Virus record (IMG/VR): IMGVR_UViG_3300048585_000077
Coordinates: 1 to 32,207 of that record
Origin: a virus
Reading direction: 5' to 3' (one strand)
Length of the DNA stretch: 32,207 bases
Numbering within the stretch: the stretch's first letter is position 1; each line of letters starts with the position of its first letter. Of this stretch, positions 2,285-32,207 are shown in pieces. Position numbers and translations under genes: made by a program. A model generated the notes under the pieces. It was not told the DNA's origin. It saw only the letters and a program-made list of their open reading frames with translations, and did no database searches.

Positions 2285-2695
2285 TCAGGAGCTCGCTGGC
2301 GCGCCGGCCGAACCGCCGTAGCCGTCGCCGTAGCCGTCGCCGTCGCCGTCGCCGTAGCCGGAGCCGGAGCCGTAGCCGTCGCCGGAGCCGTCGCCGTAGC
2401 CGTAGCCGTAGCCGGAGCCGTAGCCGTAGCCGTCGCCGTCGCCGTCGCCGGAGCCGTAGCCGTAGCCGTAGCCGTCGCCGTCGCCGGAGCCGGAGCCGGA
2501 GCCGGCCAGAAGTTCGAGCGGGATGTCGGACCGGCCGACCACCGCGCTGATTTCCTCGCAGGCGAGTAAATCTCGCTCGGCCGCAAAGCGCAGCTGGCCT
2601 TGCGTGAGGTCCTCGAGCGAGGCCCCGACGGCCGGCAGATCGCCGCACGCGCCGCACAGCTTTGCGCGTGCCAGTAGTGCGGCCGTTACGACCAT
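2285..2695 (-). CDS. Protein with C-terminal Gly-(Tyr/Asp/Ser) dipeptide repeat
   Basis: The protein has 136 residues. ATG 2695 was chosen because it lies just before the stop of the upstream gene (10-bp overlap); the longer open frame runs through that gene. Residues 1-65 form an ordinary domain with a CGAC motif near residue 15 and a helical part (QLRFAAERDLLACEEI). The remainder is an almost perfect run of 31 X-Gly pairs in which X is Tyr, Asp or Ser, followed by a short tail. Such glycine-tyrosine low-complexity tails are flexible and can drive self-association in other proteins, but I know no phage homologue. Every unit uses GGC for Gly and a codon ending in C, so the DNA is a 6-bp repeat that can change length without breaking the frame. 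Confidence 0.7.
   Translation of the reverse strand: MVVTAALLARAKLCGACGDLPAVGASLEDLTQGQLRFAAERDLLACEEISAVVGRSDIPLELLAGSGSGSGDGDGYGYGYGSGDGDGDGYGYGSGYGYGYGDGSGDGYGSGSGYGDGDGDGYGDGYGGSAGAPASS
2315..2500 (-). repeat. 6-bp coding microsatellite (31 units, GGC plus TAC/GAC/TCC)
   Basis: On the plus strand every sixth base starts GCC followed by GTA, GTC or GGA. On the minus strand this reads as X-Gly dipeptides. The three unit types are mixed without an obvious higher-order period, and the first and third codon positions are constant. Unit gain or loss would keep the frame. The antisense strand reads as Arg/Ser repeats, which is a shadow. Confidence 0.92.
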
Positions 2696-5039: not shown

Positions 5040-5987
5040 ATGGCCGCCGAATCGATTGTGTGGAACGAAATGATTGGGCAGATCATGACGCATGCAACGA
5101 CCGAGACACCGCTACTCACCTACCTGAACGAGTTCTACGTGCTCGAGAAAGCCCTCGCGGTCGGGACCGAATACCTGATGTCCGTCTCGGTCCGGGACTT
5201 TTCGGCGTGGCTCAAACGCGAAGCCATCGTGGGTGACCTGACGGAAGTCACGGTCTCGCGATGGATCCGCGACCTCGAACAGGCTGGCAAGCTGGCCGCC
5301 AAGACGATCTCCGGTCGACGCGGGGACGTCATGGCGATCTGGCGCCACGCGGCCGATGACAACCTGGTCAACGAGCCCAAGCGAGTTCGGAACGTCAAGG
5401 TCCCTAGACCGATGCCGGTCGCCTGGACGATGGACGAGTTCGACAAGATCCTCGAGGCTTGCAGGACGCTGACCGGCTACTTGAAGAACGGGCTCCCTCG
5501 CGCTCGGTACTTCTGGGCACTGCTCAAGGCCGGATACGAGACGGGCCTCCGGAGAAACGACCTCCTGCGGCTCCGGCTCGCCCCCTTCACGCCCGACGGT
5601 GTCGTGGTCGTCGTCCAACACAAGACCAACCGAGCCCACGCGGCGGCCGTCAGGCCCGACACGCTCGAAGCCATCAAGGAGCTTGGCAAGATCCTTCGCC
5701 AGCACGGTGAGCCGAACGCCGATTGCCCGCTCCGCTGGCCCTACACGCCCCGGCAGCTCTACTACTGGATCGATCGCATCACCGAACTGGCGGGCGTCCG
5801 GCACGGTGCCCTCCAGCAATGCCGCCGGACAGGCGCGACCCACACCGAACGAGTCGCCCCCGGATCGGCCGTCCGGTATCTCGGACACGCTTCGGTCAGC
5901 CAGGCCCAGTCACACTACATTGACGCCTCGCAGGCCTACGGGGTCGTGATTCCCCCGACGGTCGGCGATGCGATCCGGACAGGCTAG
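5040..5987 (+). CDS. int: Tyrosine-family site-specific integrase
   Basis: The protein has 315 residues from ATG 5040, with AAAGGGGG seven bases upstream. Residues about 25-115 form the SAM-like core-binding domain (DFSAWLKR, TVSRWIRDLEQAG, ISGRRGDVMAIWRHA). The catalytic part starts near 130. The first Arg is Arg171 in ETGLRRNDLL. The beta-hairpin Lys is Lys195 in VQHKTNRAH. The second Arg is Arg262 in QQCRRTGATH, where the usual HxxR His is replaced by Gln. His283 lies in YLGHASVSQ and the nucleophile is Tyr293 in SHYIDAS. The enzyme integrates phage DNA at a host site by strand exchange through a covalent tyrosine link. This makes the phage temperate. Gln in place of the first box-II His is seen in some active integrases. 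Confidence 0.93.
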   Translation: MAAESIVWNEMIGQIMTHATTETPLLTYLNEFYVLEKALAVGTEYLMSVSVRDFSAWLKREAIVGDLTEVTVSRWIRDLEQAGKLAAKTISGRRGDVMAIWRHAADDNLVNEPKRVRNVKVPRPMPVAWTMDEFDKILEACRTLTGYLKNGLPRARYFWALLKAGYETGLRRNDLLRLRLAPFTPDGVVVVVQHKTNRAHAAAVRPDTLEAIKELGKILRQHGEPNADCPLRWPYTPRQLYYWIDRITELAGVRHGALQQCRRTGATHTERVAPGSAVRYLGHASVSQAQSHYIDASQAYGVVIPPTVGDAIRTG

Positions 5988-23687: not shown

Positions 23688-24698
23688 TCACGCCCCGCAA
23701 TTCAAAAACAGGTTGTCGGCAAACGTACTGTCCTCGCAGTCCACTCGGACCATCGCATGGTCGCACTGGCTTCCACGGTTATGGGCGACCATTGCGCCCC
23801 GTAGACCTCGAAGGTACAGCGGATAGCCGCACCGCGCGACGTTGTTGTTGCACACAGAAACGTTGCGCTGTGTGAAGCCGACACCTGCACCAACCGTCAG
23901 CAGCCCGATCGCGAACGACCCGCAGTCGGACACCGTGTTGCCGTGGATCGTGACGACTGGATAGAGGTCCTCGGCAGTCTGCTGCTGGAGCTTCATTCCG
24001 ACACCGATGCAGTGATCGATGATGTTGTCCGCGAACTCCAGGTTGCCCCCACGCATCAGGTAAGCGCCATGCTGGCCAGGCATGTCGTGGATGTGATTGT
24101 TTGCGACAATCATGTCAGCCTCGCCCGGAACCAACAGGCCGAACGCGTGGCCAGAGATGTCGTTTCCGGCGATGCTGATACGTCGCTTCGGAATGCTATT
24201 CGCCGTACCGAGAATCGCGCCGTCGTATCCGTTGTCGTTCGGCTGAATGTGATCGCGGCCCATGCCCACAATCGTGTTGTCGAGAATCCGAATCCCACTG
24301 CACGCTCCATCTAGTACGACCGACCCGCCAGCGTGATTGGTGAGTCGGCAATCTCGCATGAGCACGTCATTAGCGGTAGATAAATGGAGGCCAGCAACGC
24401 CGTTGTACGGTGTCGAGTGCTGATGCCACGGCGATTCCAGCCCACACCCTCGCAATGTCAGTCCGACGATCTGCACGCCACTACAGCCGACGAGCGACAA
24501 CGTTTTCGCGTGTTCAGCGGCTTGGGTCAGCATGGCACCGTAGCCAAGGACTGCCAGATTCGACTTCCGGACCGTGCAATCCCCGGCCACGCGAAACGCA
24601 CCGTCCAGCGTGATCGTCGAGTACGGCTCGGCGCGCTCGAACGCATCACGCAACAACTGCGTGTCGTCGGAGCCGGTCGGCCGAAGTATTGTCTGCAT
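23688..24698 (-). CDS. Right-handed beta-helix tail spike, shorter paralogue
   Basis: The protein has 336 residues from ATG 24698, with AAGG about ten bases upstream; an upstream in-frame start overlaps the preceding gene. It lacks an N-terminal attachment domain and starts MQTILRPTGSDDTQLLRDAF, the usual entry of pectate-lyase-like spikes. About ten beta-helix coils follow, with repeated NxI/NxV turns (LDNTIVGMG, IAGNDISGHA, VANNHIHDMP, FADNIIDHC). It aligns along most of its length with the upstream spike (shared NGVAGLHLSTANDV-like and NDNGYDGAILG-like blocks). Beta-helix spikes bind or degrade surface polysaccharide. DNA is visibly less GC-rich than in the head genes. Confidence 0.8.
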   Translation of the reverse strand: MQTILRPTGSDDTQLLRDAFERAEPYSTITLDGAFRVAGDCTVRKSNLAVLGYGAMLTQAAEHAKTLSLVGCSGVQIVGLTLRGCGLESPWHQHSTPYNGVAGLHLSTANDVLMRDCRLTNHAGGSVVLDGACSGIRILDNTIVGMGRDHIQPNDNGYDGAILGTANSIPKRRISIAGNDISGHAFGLLVPGEADMIVANNHIHDMPGQHGAYLMRGGNLEFADNIIDHCIGVGMKLQQQTAEDLYPVVTIHGNTVSDCGSFAIGLLTVGAGVGFTQRNVSVCNNNVARCGYPLYLRGLRGAMVAHNRGSQCDHAMVRVDCEDSTFADNLFLNCGA

Positions 24699-24708
24699 CG
24701 CAGTGGCC

Positions 24709-26397
24709 TTATGAGGTAGCGAGGAATCCAGCGTTTTCCAAGGCAGCGAGAATCGCGTTGATGGTCGCGATCTCCGTTCCGCCAGCTGCGTCTGCAATGT
24801 GAGCTTGCTGGTAGAGTTTGATGATCTTGCCGCCTTCGGTCATGGCATGGATCGCCGTATTTCCCGCGGACACGTCGAACGCGTAAAGCGACGCGCGATT
24901 CGTGTACGCAGTCGGCGCAGTCTTGGACTGTTCCAGCGGTACGATGTGTGTGATTGTAGGAGTCGCGGAATTAACAACGGTCGTACTGTTCAGGAATGGC
25001 CCCGTGATCTCAATCACCGCATTCGCGTCGCCATTTAGGGCGGCCTGCAAATTGGCTGGCGGTGAGTAGTCCTCGAACCTCCATCGGATGTTGCTGAATA
25101 ACACCTTACCGTTGTTGGGTGATACCTCGTCTGACACGAACGCCATACACCTGTACGTTGGCGCAGTAGACGCTCCCGCGTTAATCGGACAATCGACGAT
25201 TGTCGCACCGTCGATCACGATTCGATGTTGCGGTTTGTAGATGTTAAACGCAGCGCCCTCGCATTGGGAAATCCTGTTATTGAGGAAGTCTCCCTGCGAG
25301 TCCCAAATGTACATCCCGAGCCAGCTGCACTTGCGAATGCGATTAGAAGCCGCCAATACGTTCTTGGCAGCCTTCACGTACAAACCGTACTGCACGTCAT
25401 AGATGTTATTGCCAATGATGGACGTGTTCGTCGTATAGTAGCCATCACCTGCGCCGGCCGGCATGATCGCCACGCCAGAGTCGCCGCATTTTGAGATGGA
25501 GTTTCCAGTGATGTTGCAAACGCAGTCGACCGTTTCAGCGTTTTGATTTTGCAGCTTGATTGCGTTTTGCGCGATGTTGTAAAACGAATTTCCAGCAACC
25601 GTCATGTCGCCGCCTTGCTGGATGTATAGCCCCATCTGCCCGAATATGTCGCGCACCACGTTGTCAACGACCAACATGCCTTGTCCAGTTGTGGCAAAGA
25701 TCCCGTGAGCGTGCCCGCTTAGATAGTTTCCACTGATGATTAGGCCATTTTTGGATTGGATGTTGCCAGCTGAACCAATGCAGGCATCTGCACCGTTGTC
25801 GTTATACCCACCCGTCCCCATGCCGATCACACGGTTGCGCTCAATGCGTAGACCATCACAAATGCCGTGTATCTGAATACCACCTCCCGCATGATTCGAC
25901 AGATGGCAGCGCTCCACCGCCACATCGTTCGAGGCCGTTACGTATACGCCTGCCACGCCATTCCACACCGTATTGCCGGCTGCCCACGGATCCTCAGTCC
26001 CGTTGCCAATCAGGCGGAATCCAGATACTCGGCACCTGGAAACGCCAGATAGCGTGATGGTTTTTTTCTGTGTGCCCGTCTGGGTAATTGAGGCCCCGTC
26101 GCCGTCAAGAATTACGTCATCTACGGCCAGCGTGAGCGTGTCCGAGACGGAGAATGCACCGCGAAAGATGACGCGGGTGTTTGGCGTGATCCCGGCCAGG
26201 ATGGCATTGATTGCAGCCGTATCGTCGGCGCCGCTGGGCTTGAGGAATACTGACTGTCCGTACAGACGGTTGCGGAGCGACCGCAACGCGATCCGGCGGG
26301 ATTTCGGCGTCGAGGCAATGTCGGTAACGACCGGGAAACAATCGTCCTCGCCCATGTCTGTCACCGCCGTGAACGCCGAGACTTTTTTCTTCGCCAT
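24709..26397 (-). CDS. Right-handed beta-helix tail spike with particle-binding N-terminus
   Basis: The protein has 562 residues from ATG 26397. Residues 1-45 (KKVSAFTAVTDMGEDDCFPV, then SRRIALRSLRNRL) form the short attachment domain common to phage spikes and fibres. Residues about 50-385 are a beta-helix (FLKPSGADDTAAINAILAGI entry, many NxI/NxF turns). Residues about 385-500 look like a beta-rich binding or trimer part, and the last 40 residues (IIKLYQQAHIADAAGG, then INAILAALENAGFLAT) match a C-terminal tag seen in many tail proteins. It probably acts as receptor-binding or depolymerising spike. The ATG overlaps the TAA of the small gene before it. Confidence 0.88.
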   Translation of the reverse strand: MAKKKVSAFTAVTDMGEDDCFPVVTDIASTPKSRRIALRSLRNRLYGQSVFLKPSGADDTAAINAILAGITPNTRVIFRGAFSVSDTLTLAVDDVILDGDGASITQTGTQKKTITLSGVSRCRVSGFRLIGNGTEDPWAAGNTVWNGVAGVYVTASNDVAVERCHLSNHAGGGIQIHGICDGLRIERNRVIGMGTGGYNDNGADACIGSAGNIQSKNGLIISGNYLSGHAHGIFATTGQGMLVVDNVVRDIFGQMGLYIQQGGDMTVAGNSFYNIAQNAIKLQNQNAETVDCVCNITGNSISKCGDSGVAIMPAGAGDGYYTTNTSIIGNNIYDVQYGLYVKAAKNVLAASNRIRKCSWLGMYIWDSQGDFLNNRISQCEGAAFNIYKPQHRIVIDGATIVDCPINAGASTAPTYRCMAFVSDEVSPNNGKVLFSNIRWRFEDYSPPANLQAALNGDANAVIEITGPFLNSTTVVNSATPTITHIVPLEQSKTAPTAYTNRASLYAFDVSAGNTAIHAMTEGGKIIKLYQQAHIADAAGGTEIATINAILAALENAGFLATS

Positions 26398-26895: not shown

Positions 26896-27254
26896 CGTAC
26901 TTCCTCCTGACTGGTCGGGCGGGTGAGGTCAAAGGCCGGATCGGTGTCTAGTTCGTCCGAACAGTCGTCTAGTTCGGCCGAACAGTCGTCTAGTTCGGCC
27001 GCCGGACAGGCCAGATTGGTGAGCATACAGGGACGCGTCAGGATGATGTCCGTGACGACCTGCTGGCGGGTCTCGAGCGTGGCGACGCGGCGATGGGTCG
27101 AGGCCACCAGGTCGTAGAGTCGCAGGTCGTCCGGGCCGGTGTGGTTCACGGCATCGTTCGCCTGCTTGGATTGCTGTTTGGCCCGATAGCCGTAATAGGC
27201 CGCCAGGGCGGCCATCAGGGCGGTCAGGAGTGTCGAGAAGGATTCTTGTCCCAC
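26892..27254 (-). CDS. Small membrane-anchored protein with LDDCS tandem repeat
   Basis: The protein has 120 residues from GTG 27254, with GAGGG six bases upstream. Residues 6-24 are hydrophobic (STLLTALMAALAAYYGY). A helical middle follows (LRLYDLVASTHRRVATLETR), then a CMLTNLACPA segment and an acidic repeat (AELDDCSAELDDCSDELD). An N-terminal anchor plus coiled part is reminiscent of small phage holin-associated or spanin-like proteins, but nothing is diagnostic. The repeat is a 21-bp DNA duplication. Confidence 0.65.
   Translation of the reverse strand: MGQESFSTLLTALMAALAAYYGYRAKQQSKQANDAVNHTGPDDLRLYDLVASTHRRVATLETRQQVVTDIILTRPCMLTNLACPAAELDDCSAELDDCSDELDTDPAFDLTRPTSQEEVR
26946..27003 (-). 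repeat. 21-bp tandem repeat (about 2.7 copies) in a coding region
   Basis: The unit begins GTCTAGTTCG and ends CGAACAGTC. Copies stand at 26946 and 26967, with a partial third at 26988. The second copy contains the 12-bp palindrome GTTCGGCCGAAC. Each copy adds seven residues, so copy-number change keeps the frame. Confidence 0.9.
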
Positions 27255-30796: not shown

Positions 30797-31046
<250 letters not shown>

Positions 31047-31047
<1 letters not shown>

Positions 31048-32042
31048 CACGCCCTCACCTTCTCGCGTTTTTCGATCCGCCGTCCGTCCTTCGTGGTCGG
31101 CCACTCGGGCACGATGTTGACGCGCCGGAGCAGCTGGGTGAGCTCGAGGCCCCGCCGGGCGACCGCCTCGGCCAAGCAGGCGAAAAAGTGGCTCGGCTTA
31201 TCGCGGCCGTTCAGCTCCGCACCGCGACACGCGGAATAGACCTCCGCCTCGGAGAGTTCCCCGATGTCGGTCTCGAGCAAGGCCGCCACGCCCCAGAGGT
31301 TCCCGCCGTCCGGGCCGCTGTAGTGGCAGGCGTCGAAGATCGCTCGAGCCTGCTCGGCGATGGCCTCGATCGTGACGGCCGTTCGGATCGTCGAGCTCGC
31401 GGCCGTCTTGGGCTTTCTCTTCCGGGCCTCCCCCCCTCCCCGCATCTGGTCCAGGTCCTCGCACGCGCCCGCGTGCGTTCTTGGACCAGGTGTATTCTTC
31501 TCTTCTCTTCTCTTCTCTTCTCTAGTGACGTTTTCGTCACACGGCGGGCGTGACGGATTCGTGACGGCCGCGTGACGGCCGCGTGACGGAACCGTGACGG
31601 TCGTCACGTTCTCGTCACACGAAACTTGTGACACATCCGTGACGGAGTCGTGACCGGGACGTGACGGACGTTCGGCTTTCGTCACGCCAGAACCGTGACG
31701 CCCGCGTGACTCGCGCTGCCGCGTCATCGCCTCCGCACGGGCCTTCGCGGTCCGTCCGTTGTGTTTTTCGAAGTCCGGGAAGGCCACCTGGTCGGCCCAG
31801 ACGTCCAGCCAGCCGACCAGCTCCATCGCGACCGCGAAGCCCTCGCGGCCGACATAGCGGTCGACCCACCGGACCGTGATCCCGGGTGCCGTCCCGTCGG
31901 CCGTCTGGCGGTCCGCCCAGCTCCACAGCCGATGGAGCTTACCGACTACCTCGTCTTCCGAGATGTCGAGCGCGGCCGCCATTCGGATGACCGCCGGGTC
32001 GTCCGCCAGGTCGACCCGCATCTTGATCCAGTCACCTGCCAT
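31047..32042 (-). CDS. Replication initiator-like protein (lambda O / DnaD-type layout)
   Basis: The protein has 331 residues from ATG 32042. The N-terminal 95 residues (DWIKMRVDLADDPAVIRMAA, VVGKLHRLWSWADRQTADG, VDRYVGREGFAVAMELVGWL) match the winged-helix domain of phage replication proteins that bind the origin. A disordered Ser/Thr/Arg-rich linker follows (about 100-205), ending in a REEKRREEK stretch encoded by a pyrimidine tract. The C-terminal part (about 215-331) is helical (IAEQARAIFDACHYSG, FFACLAEAVARRGLELTQLL) like helicase-loader domains. The linker DNA carries an iteron array, as the lambda O gene does. On the circle it follows the annealing protein gene by 93 bp. Confidence 0.72.
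31446..31710. other. Candidate replication origin inside the replication gene
   Basis: Three elements lie side by side. (1) A nested hairpin: CTGGTCCA/TGGACCAG outer arms (31446-31453, 31482-31489) and GCACGCG/CGCGTGC inner arms (31461-31467, 31470-31476). (2) A 29-base pure pyrimidine tract with period 5 (31495-31523). (3) Twelve GTGAC sites at 31525, 31550, 31561, 31572, 31583, 31594, 31628, 31639, 31650, 31661, 31695 and 31706, mostly followed by G, plus inverted GTCAC at 31536, 31603, 31614 and 31681. Runs are spaced exactly 11 bp. Eleven is not a multiple of three, so the repeat is not a peptide repeat and must be kept at DNA level. Confidence 0.7.
31495..31523. repeat. Homopyrimidine TCTTC tandem tract
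   Basis: Twenty-nine consecutive pyrimidines on the plus strand with about five TCTTC units; the coding strand reads the Arg/Glu/Lys-rich linker of the replication protein. Such tracts melt or form triplex structures more easily than the surrounding GC-rich DNA. Confidence 0.9.
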
Positions 32043-32130: not shown

Positions 32131-32207
32131 TACGATCACTTCCCCTTCCCGTTCGCCCTTCCGCCCCGCCCGTTCCGGATCTTGTTGCGCTGCTTACCGA
32201 TCCAGCC
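32131..32207. repeat. 77-bp exact direct repeat, terminal copy
   Basis: This is identical to 467-543 and ends the window. It carries the last codons and stop of the annealing-protein gene, so that gene continues into base 544 when the circle is closed. Confidence 0.95.

What the first reader, a model, noticed from the sequence alone, without database searches (positions are those of the whole stretch)
31446..31710. Iteron-type origin embedded in the replication gene, with 11-bp phased GTGAC repeats
Twelve direct GTGAC sites and four inverted ones crowd into under 190 bp. The runs 31550-31594 (five sites), 31628-31661 (four sites) and 31695-31706 have exact 11-bp spacing, and the runs are separated by 34 bp steps in which inverted copies sit. 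Eleven bp is one helical turn, which would put the sites on one face of the DNA. Because 11 is not a multiple of 3, the coded peptide is not repetitive, so selection is on DNA. A pyrimidine tract and a nested hairpin stand beside it. Lambda places its iterons inside gene O (established knowledge). The motif, phasing and hairpin make a tripartite origin that I have not seen described for this kind of phage.
Basis: partly seen in the sequence, partly recalled or inferred. Interest (0 to 1): 0.85.

Follow-up and report, generated by a model that had tools for sequence, protein, structure and literature searches.

The report
Phage replication origin hidden inside initiator gene
The repeats are very probably the phage's own replication start site, written inside the gene for the protein that binds it, and comparison with hundreds of related phages suggests which two amino acids of that protein read the site.

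Summary
The array is real: 12 GTGAC and 4 GTCAC sites in 186 bp, with the 11- and 34-bp spacings described. It lies in the linker-coding part of a phrog_2509 replication initiator gene (31047-32042, minus strand). The same grammar (half-site, 11 bp, half-site, 14 bp to inverted half-site, 11 bp, inverted half-site, then a purine tract AGAGAAGAG...) occurs in relatives from E. coli Rac (YdaU), epsilon15, Pseudomonas, Burkholderia and Planctomycetota. A motif-blind test finds 11-bp direct repeats in 90 of 100 distinct homologs (42 expected). The half-site letters differ (GTCAC, GTAAC, GTCCG, rarer others) but track residues 105 and 109 on one face of a helix after the winged-helix domain: 149 of 156 homologs match, none crosses to another main class. 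A second array elsewhere in the gene follows the same residues (87 of 89). The window has the largest array seen (16 half-sites, three tandem cores; median 4, next 8). Best reading: an in-gene, lambda-O-like origin whose initiator reads its iterons with a basic helix, the tract being the unwinding element. Binding and origin activity are untested. In-gene origins are known; the phased grammar, purine tract and residue-to-iteron code look new in the literature I could search.

The parts
31047..32042 (-). Replication initiator gene, 331 aa (phrog_2509), host of the origin
   Evidence: PHROGs E 8e-49 over residues 1-123; 80+ viral and 67 genomic relatives
31764..32042 (-). Codes for residues 1-93, winged-helix domain
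   Evidence: AlphaFold2 model, pLDDT about 89-98 for residues 11-90; VIA-align Z about 5 to CRP winged helices and to plasmid Rep-DNA structures 5kbj/4pql
31692..31763 (-). Codes for residues 94-117, basic helix (HNGxxAKxRA...R....R) proposed to read the half-site
   Evidence: Helix 97-117 in the model (pLDDT 61-69); residues 101, 105, 109, 112 carry the highest mutual information with half-site class
31716..31730 (-). Codons 105-109: Ala105 and Gln109, the predicted specificity residues (A/G/S + Q/K goes with GTCAC)
31681..31710 (-). Core 1: half-sites 31706, 31695, 14-bp dyad to inverted 31681 (the next inverted site, 31670, is degenerate)
31603..31665 (-). Core 2: four half-sites 31661-31628 at 11 bp, 14-bp dyad to inverted 31614 and 31603
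31525..31598 (-). Core 3: five half-sites 31594-31550 at 11 bp, 14-bp dyad to inverted 31536, then 31525 abutting the purine tract
   Evidence: core position relative to the tract is shared by relatives
31495..31523 (-). Purine tract (GAGAA)n on the coding strand, proposed unwinding element; codes REEKRREEK
   Evidence: Least stable 30 bp of the gene, lowest 0.06% of the window; in relatives the peptide's Arg codons are AGA in 359 of 360 against 8% elsewhere
31446..31489 (.). Nested hairpin beside the tract; real but not conserved, role unclear

Best explanation
31495-31710 is the phage's theta-type replication origin, embedded in the coding sequence of its own initiator. Initiator molecules bind the GTCAC/GTGAC half-sites. 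The inverted pair 14 bp apart (a 19-bp dyad, the size of a lambda iteron) is bound as a dimer, and further half-sites 11 bp (one helical turn) outward extend the complex on the same DNA face. The specificity-giving contact is made by a basic helix (residues about 97-117) following a winged-helix domain, with residues 105 and 109 setting the half-site letters. The complex melts the adjacent purine/pyrimidine tract, and the variable C-terminal domain, with a DnaC-like or other loader in relatives, brings in the host helicase. Shown here: the array, its conservation, its coupling to residues 105/109, selection on the tract. Inferred: binding, dimerisation, melting, helicase loading, origin activity.
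For: Gene identity. Motif-blind test over 100 homologs under 85% identity: direct 5-mer repeats at 11 bp in 90 (42 expected from synonymous shuffles, z 10), inverted at 14 bp in 90 (48 expected, z 8.9). Fixed layout relative to the purine tract in 145 clusters: half-sites at -42 and -31, inverted at -17 and -6. Residues 105/109 predict the half-site class in 149 of 156 homologs with no cross-over between the three main classes; still true when genes whose sites overlap those codons are removed (139 of 139 classified); the separate N-terminal core agrees in 87 of 89. The half-site class changes about 22 times on a tree built from residues 1-93 alone, and residues follow. Tract. Loader genes downstream in Rac (YdaV) and phiPSA1. 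Rac is reported to carry an active origin, oriJ (PMC3945230).
Against: No binding, footprint or replication data for any family member were found. The cumulative GC skew of the window shows no significant extremum (p 0.28). The helix has modest model confidence (61-69). The tree is poorly resolved: on starred branches only 5 independent switches can be counted for GTAAC (4.8 of 5 follow, p 0.06). Helix and linker array are neighbours, so they can be exchanged as one block by recombination, which would inflate the association. The window record holds no DnaB match and no recognised loader.
Confidence: 0.86

Rival explanations
1. The array is an operator: the initiator (or a repressor) binds inside the gene to shut off its own transcription, and replication starts elsewhere.
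For: Initiators often autoregulate (general knowledge); co-variation with the initiator helix shows a cognate site, not an origin as such.
Against: Sites sit mid-gene, not at a promoter; they abut a conserved low-stability purine tract at fixed distance, as in lambda ori (PMC7466680).
Confidence: 0.08
2. The repeats are a by-product of a low-complexity protein linker (Val-Thr and Arg-Glu-Glu-Lys peptides) selected as protein.
For: The linker is Val/Thr-rich, and synonymous shuffles alone keep about 7 of the 16 half-sites.
Against: Sites use all three frames; 11- and 14-bp spacings exceed synonymous shuffles in 100 homologs; Arg codons in the tract peptide are AGA 359 of 360; half-site letters track residues elsewhere in the protein.
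Confidence: 0.02
3. The sites are for a host protein or another phage protein (partition, packaging, DnaA-like, methylase), not for the gene's own product.
For: Nothing direct; array binding by other factors cannot be excluded from sequence.
Against: Site letters change together with two residues of this protein across about 22 switches and across many hosts.
Confidence: 0.03

Closest known systems
Phage lambda ori inside gene O (and Stx phage relatives)
   Same: Origin in the middle of the initiator gene; iterons that are 19-bp inverted repeats with half-sites 14 bp apart (PMC7466680); an A+T/purine-rich unwinding tract beside them; separate C-terminal part and a loader gene downstream.
   Different: Lambda has four separate dyads at 20-24 bp; here half-sites are multiplied outward at 11 bp and cores joined at 9 bp. 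The proteins belong to different PHROGs (phrog_277 against phrog_2509). No residue-to-iteron code was found described for lambda.
phrog_2509 initiators: Rac YdaU, epsilon15, SPN1S, phiPSA1, TL-2011b
   Same: Same protein family, same half-site grammar, same tract.
   Different: Half-sites GTAAC (Rac, TL-2011b) or GTCCG (epsilon15, phiPSA1) instead of GTCAC; usually about 4 half-sites in the linker plus a second core in the N-terminal coding part; the window has 16 in the linker and no N-terminal core. No published origin map for these genes was found.
RepA_N plasmid initiators (pSK41 RepA; PDB 5kbj, 4pql)
   Same: Winged-helix initiator; weak fold match over model residues 6-90 (Z 5.1, rmsd 2.8, 75 aligned); in-gene iterons are known for this family (general knowledge).
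   Different: Match no better than CRP winged helices; no sequence relation; no trailing basic helix compared.
DnaD-like phage replisome organisers (TP901-1 Rep)
   Same: Phage initiator/helicase loader; in-gene origin (general knowledge).
   Different: TP901-1 Rep shows no 11/14-bp grammar and other PHROGs.

Membership tests
phrog_2509 phage replication initiators | N-terminal domain matches the profile | tested here: met
   E 8e-49, residues 1-123
phrog_2509 phage replication initiators | Half-site grammar 11/14 bp plus purine tract in the linker-coding part | tested here: met
Lambda-O-type in-gene origin | Iterons inside the initiator's own gene | tested here: met
Lambda-O-type in-gene origin | Easily melted tract adjoining the iterons | tested here: met
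   lowest 0.06% of 30-bp windows; it is a purine tract, not strictly A+T-rich
Lambda-O-type in-gene origin | Protein belongs to the lambda O sequence family | tested here: not met
   window protein hits phrog_2509 and phrog_9474 only; lambda O hits phrog_277 and relatives
Lambda-O-type in-gene origin | Initiator binds iterons and starts replication there | not testable with these tools
   needs binding and replication assays
bZIP-like DNA reading by one basic helix | Isolated helix after the fold, with specificity residues on one face | tested here: inconclusive
   helix 97-117 modelled at pLDDT 61-69; 101/105/109/112 top the mutual information list; no homology claimed
RepA_N initiators | Fold of the N-terminal domain | tested here: inconclusive
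   Z 5.1, tied with CRP

The most novel reading that the evidence does not exclude
A family-wide recognition code: in this very common phage initiator family, two residues on a single basic helix (105 and 109) dictate the letters of the iteron half-site (A/G/S+Q/K: GTCAC; T+V: GTAAC; D/E+K: GTCCG; R: GTGGC; K+Q: GTAGA), so that origins and origin cross-talk between prophages can be predicted from sequence, and initiator and array switch specificity together in evolution.
Probability: 0.6. Interest if true: 0.8.

Novelty: new variant of a known kind. Interest (0 to 1): 0.7.

Why it matters
It locates, by sequence alone, the likely replication origins of a large family of phages and prophages, including Rac and epsilon15, where I found no published map, and offers a clear testable link between initiator residues and iteron letters. 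That makes origin specificity, prophage cross-replication and origin evolution open to direct tests, and it explains an otherwise odd 'REEKRREE' peptide as the coding shadow of an unwinding tract.

Tried and rejected
Hairpin as a third conserved origin part: not general in relatives. GC skew: no significant extremum. Protein-repeat explanation: rejected by synonymous shuffles, reading frames and Arg codons; the first Arg count was circular because the tract was defined by purines, so it was repeated on the peptide. Residue 112 as specificity residue: ranked high but its codon is inside the array in some genes, so not relied on. TP901-1 Rep as a relative with the same grammar: none found. Foldseek gave no match at E <= 0.001, and no PDB sequence relative was found. 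Looking for DnaB or a loader in the window: none. Ten literature searches found no description of this array or code; most subscription papers, including the oriJ plasmid paper cited in PMC11014345, were not readable here, so prior description of Rac oriJ inside ydaU cannot be excluded.

Full report
1. Observation. Chance is excluded both by base composition and by synonymous shuffling of the gene itself. Reading the coding (minus) strand, with m = GTCAC and rc = GTGAC, the order is m 333, m 344, rc 358; m 378, 389, 400, 411, rc 425, 436; m 445, 456, 467, 478, 489, rc 503, m 514; then the purine tract from 520. The rule is: m to m 11, m to rc 14, rc to rc 11, rc to next m 9. This gives three tandem cores, the last abutting the tract. 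The final site is m where rc is expected, a single C/G change.

2. Gene. The open reading frame 31047-32042 (minus) matches phrog_2509, replication initiation protein, over residues 1-123. No Pfam family matches. The model shows a winged helix (16-87) and then a helix at 97-117. The fold comparison gives generic winged helices, with the plasmid Rep-DNA structures among the top rows but tied with CRP.

3. Relatives. Relatives were drawn from viral contigs, genomes and named phages, among them Rac YdaU, epsilon15, phiPSA1, TL-2011b and Xanthomonas CP2. Hosts include Pseudomonas, Burkholderiales, Enterobacterales, Xanthomonadales, Verrucomicrobia and Planctomycetota. After removing sequences over 85% identical in the N-terminal part, 100 and then 176 clusters remained.

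4. Conserved grammar. Without naming any motif, direct 5-mer repeats at 11 bp occur in 90 of 100 genes (42 expected), and inverted ones at 14 bp in 90 (48 expected); the peaks at 10, 12 and 16 are the same dyads read from longer arms, and those at 23, 25 and 34 follow from dyad plus 11-bp steps. By gene, significant half-sites are GTCCG (31), GTCAC (28), GTAAC (14), with rarer GTTGC and GTGGC. Relative to the purine tract the half-sites stand at -42 and -31 and the inverted ones at -17 and -6. Most relatives also have a core in the N-terminal coding part, at nt 149 in the GTCAC/GTAAC groups and nt 66 in the GTCCG group; the window lacks it. With 16 linker half-sites the window has the largest array of 442 genes counted (median 4, next 8).

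5. Residue-to-iteron coupling. Residue 105 carries 1.41 of 1.48 bits of half-site class, residue 109 carries 1.12, then 112 and 101: spacing 4, 4, 3, one face of the helix. A/G/S105 with Q/K109 goes with GTCAC, T/V105 with V/L109 with GTAAC, D/E105 with K109 with GTCCG: 149 of 156 (five counted from ties), and the seven exceptions have unlisted or degenerate sites, not another main class. K+Q goes with GTAGA in 5 of 7 and R with GTGGC in 2 of 2. Removing genes whose sites overlap codons 105-109 leaves 139 of 139. The N-terminal core agrees in 87 of 89; the two exceptions, L037 and L061, have an acidic 105, GTCCG in the linker, and still GTCAC in the N-terminal core, as expected of switches in progress. 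On a tree of residues 1-93 the class changes about 22 times. Support is limited: on starred branches 3 to 5 independent pairs, nearly all in the predicted direction, p about 0.06-0.25. Recombination of helix and array as a block is a possible contributor.

6. Unwinding tract. (TCTTC)5.6 at 31496-31523 is the least stable 30 bp in the gene and in the lowest 0.06% of the window. In 128 clusters with the REEKRREE-type peptide, 359 of 360 Arg codons are AGA, against 301 of 3624 elsewhere, so the DNA, not only the peptide, is selected.

7. Mechanism. By analogy to lambda, where 19-bp inverted-repeat iterons bind O and the two next to the A+T-rich tract suffice for replication in vitro (PMC7466680), I propose dimer binding at the 14-bp dyads, lateral growth at 11 bp on one face, melting of the tract, and loading of the host helicase through the swapped C-terminal domain (DnaT-like in several relatives) and a DnaC-like loader downstream in Rac and phiPSA1. 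Lambda's own half-sites are also 14 bp apart. None of these steps is shown for this family here.

8. Known or new. In-gene phage origins are established. I found no description of this grammar, of the purine tract or of the residue coupling in the open literature searched, but the library lacks most subscription papers, and Rac's oriJ may have been placed in or near ydaU already. Hence 'new variant of a known kind'.

Noticed in passing
L006:1952-3058, L008:3001-4023, L017:3001-4038: An HNH endonuclease domain (PF14279/PF01844) is inserted in frame in the linker of the initiator, splitting the iteron array in two. Could be a homing element in an origin or a nickase tied to the initiator.
   Followed up: partly
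window 32131-32207 and 467-543: The last 77 bp of the record repeat exactly at 467-543, the length of a common assembly k-mer; the genome may be a circle of about 31.66 kb with 1-466 an alternative end, perhaps an integration junction.
   Followed up: no
window 2315-2504: Array of about 32 copies of the hexamer GCCGTA.
   Followed up: no
window 26946-27001: 2.7 copies of a 21-bp tandem repeat, 97% alike.
   Followed up: no
window 31010-31040: (GT)15.5 run just past the stop codon of the initiator gene.
   Followed up: no
window 5040-5987: Integrase (phrog_1), so the phage is probably temperate.
   Followed up: no
window 23688-26397: Two neighbouring genes with beta-helix / NosD domains, likely tail spikes.
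   Followed up: no
L152, L153, L155-L158: Distant relatives (Planctomycetaceae, Chromatiales, Delftia, Paraburkholderia, Kluyvera, Lampropedia) carry GTAACG/GTGACG repeats often at 12-bp spacing, as do the K105 members L100/L122.
   Followed up: partly
L037, L061: Acidic residue 105 with GTCCG in the linker core but GTCAC in the N-terminal core: apparent origins caught in mid-switch.
   Followed up: partly
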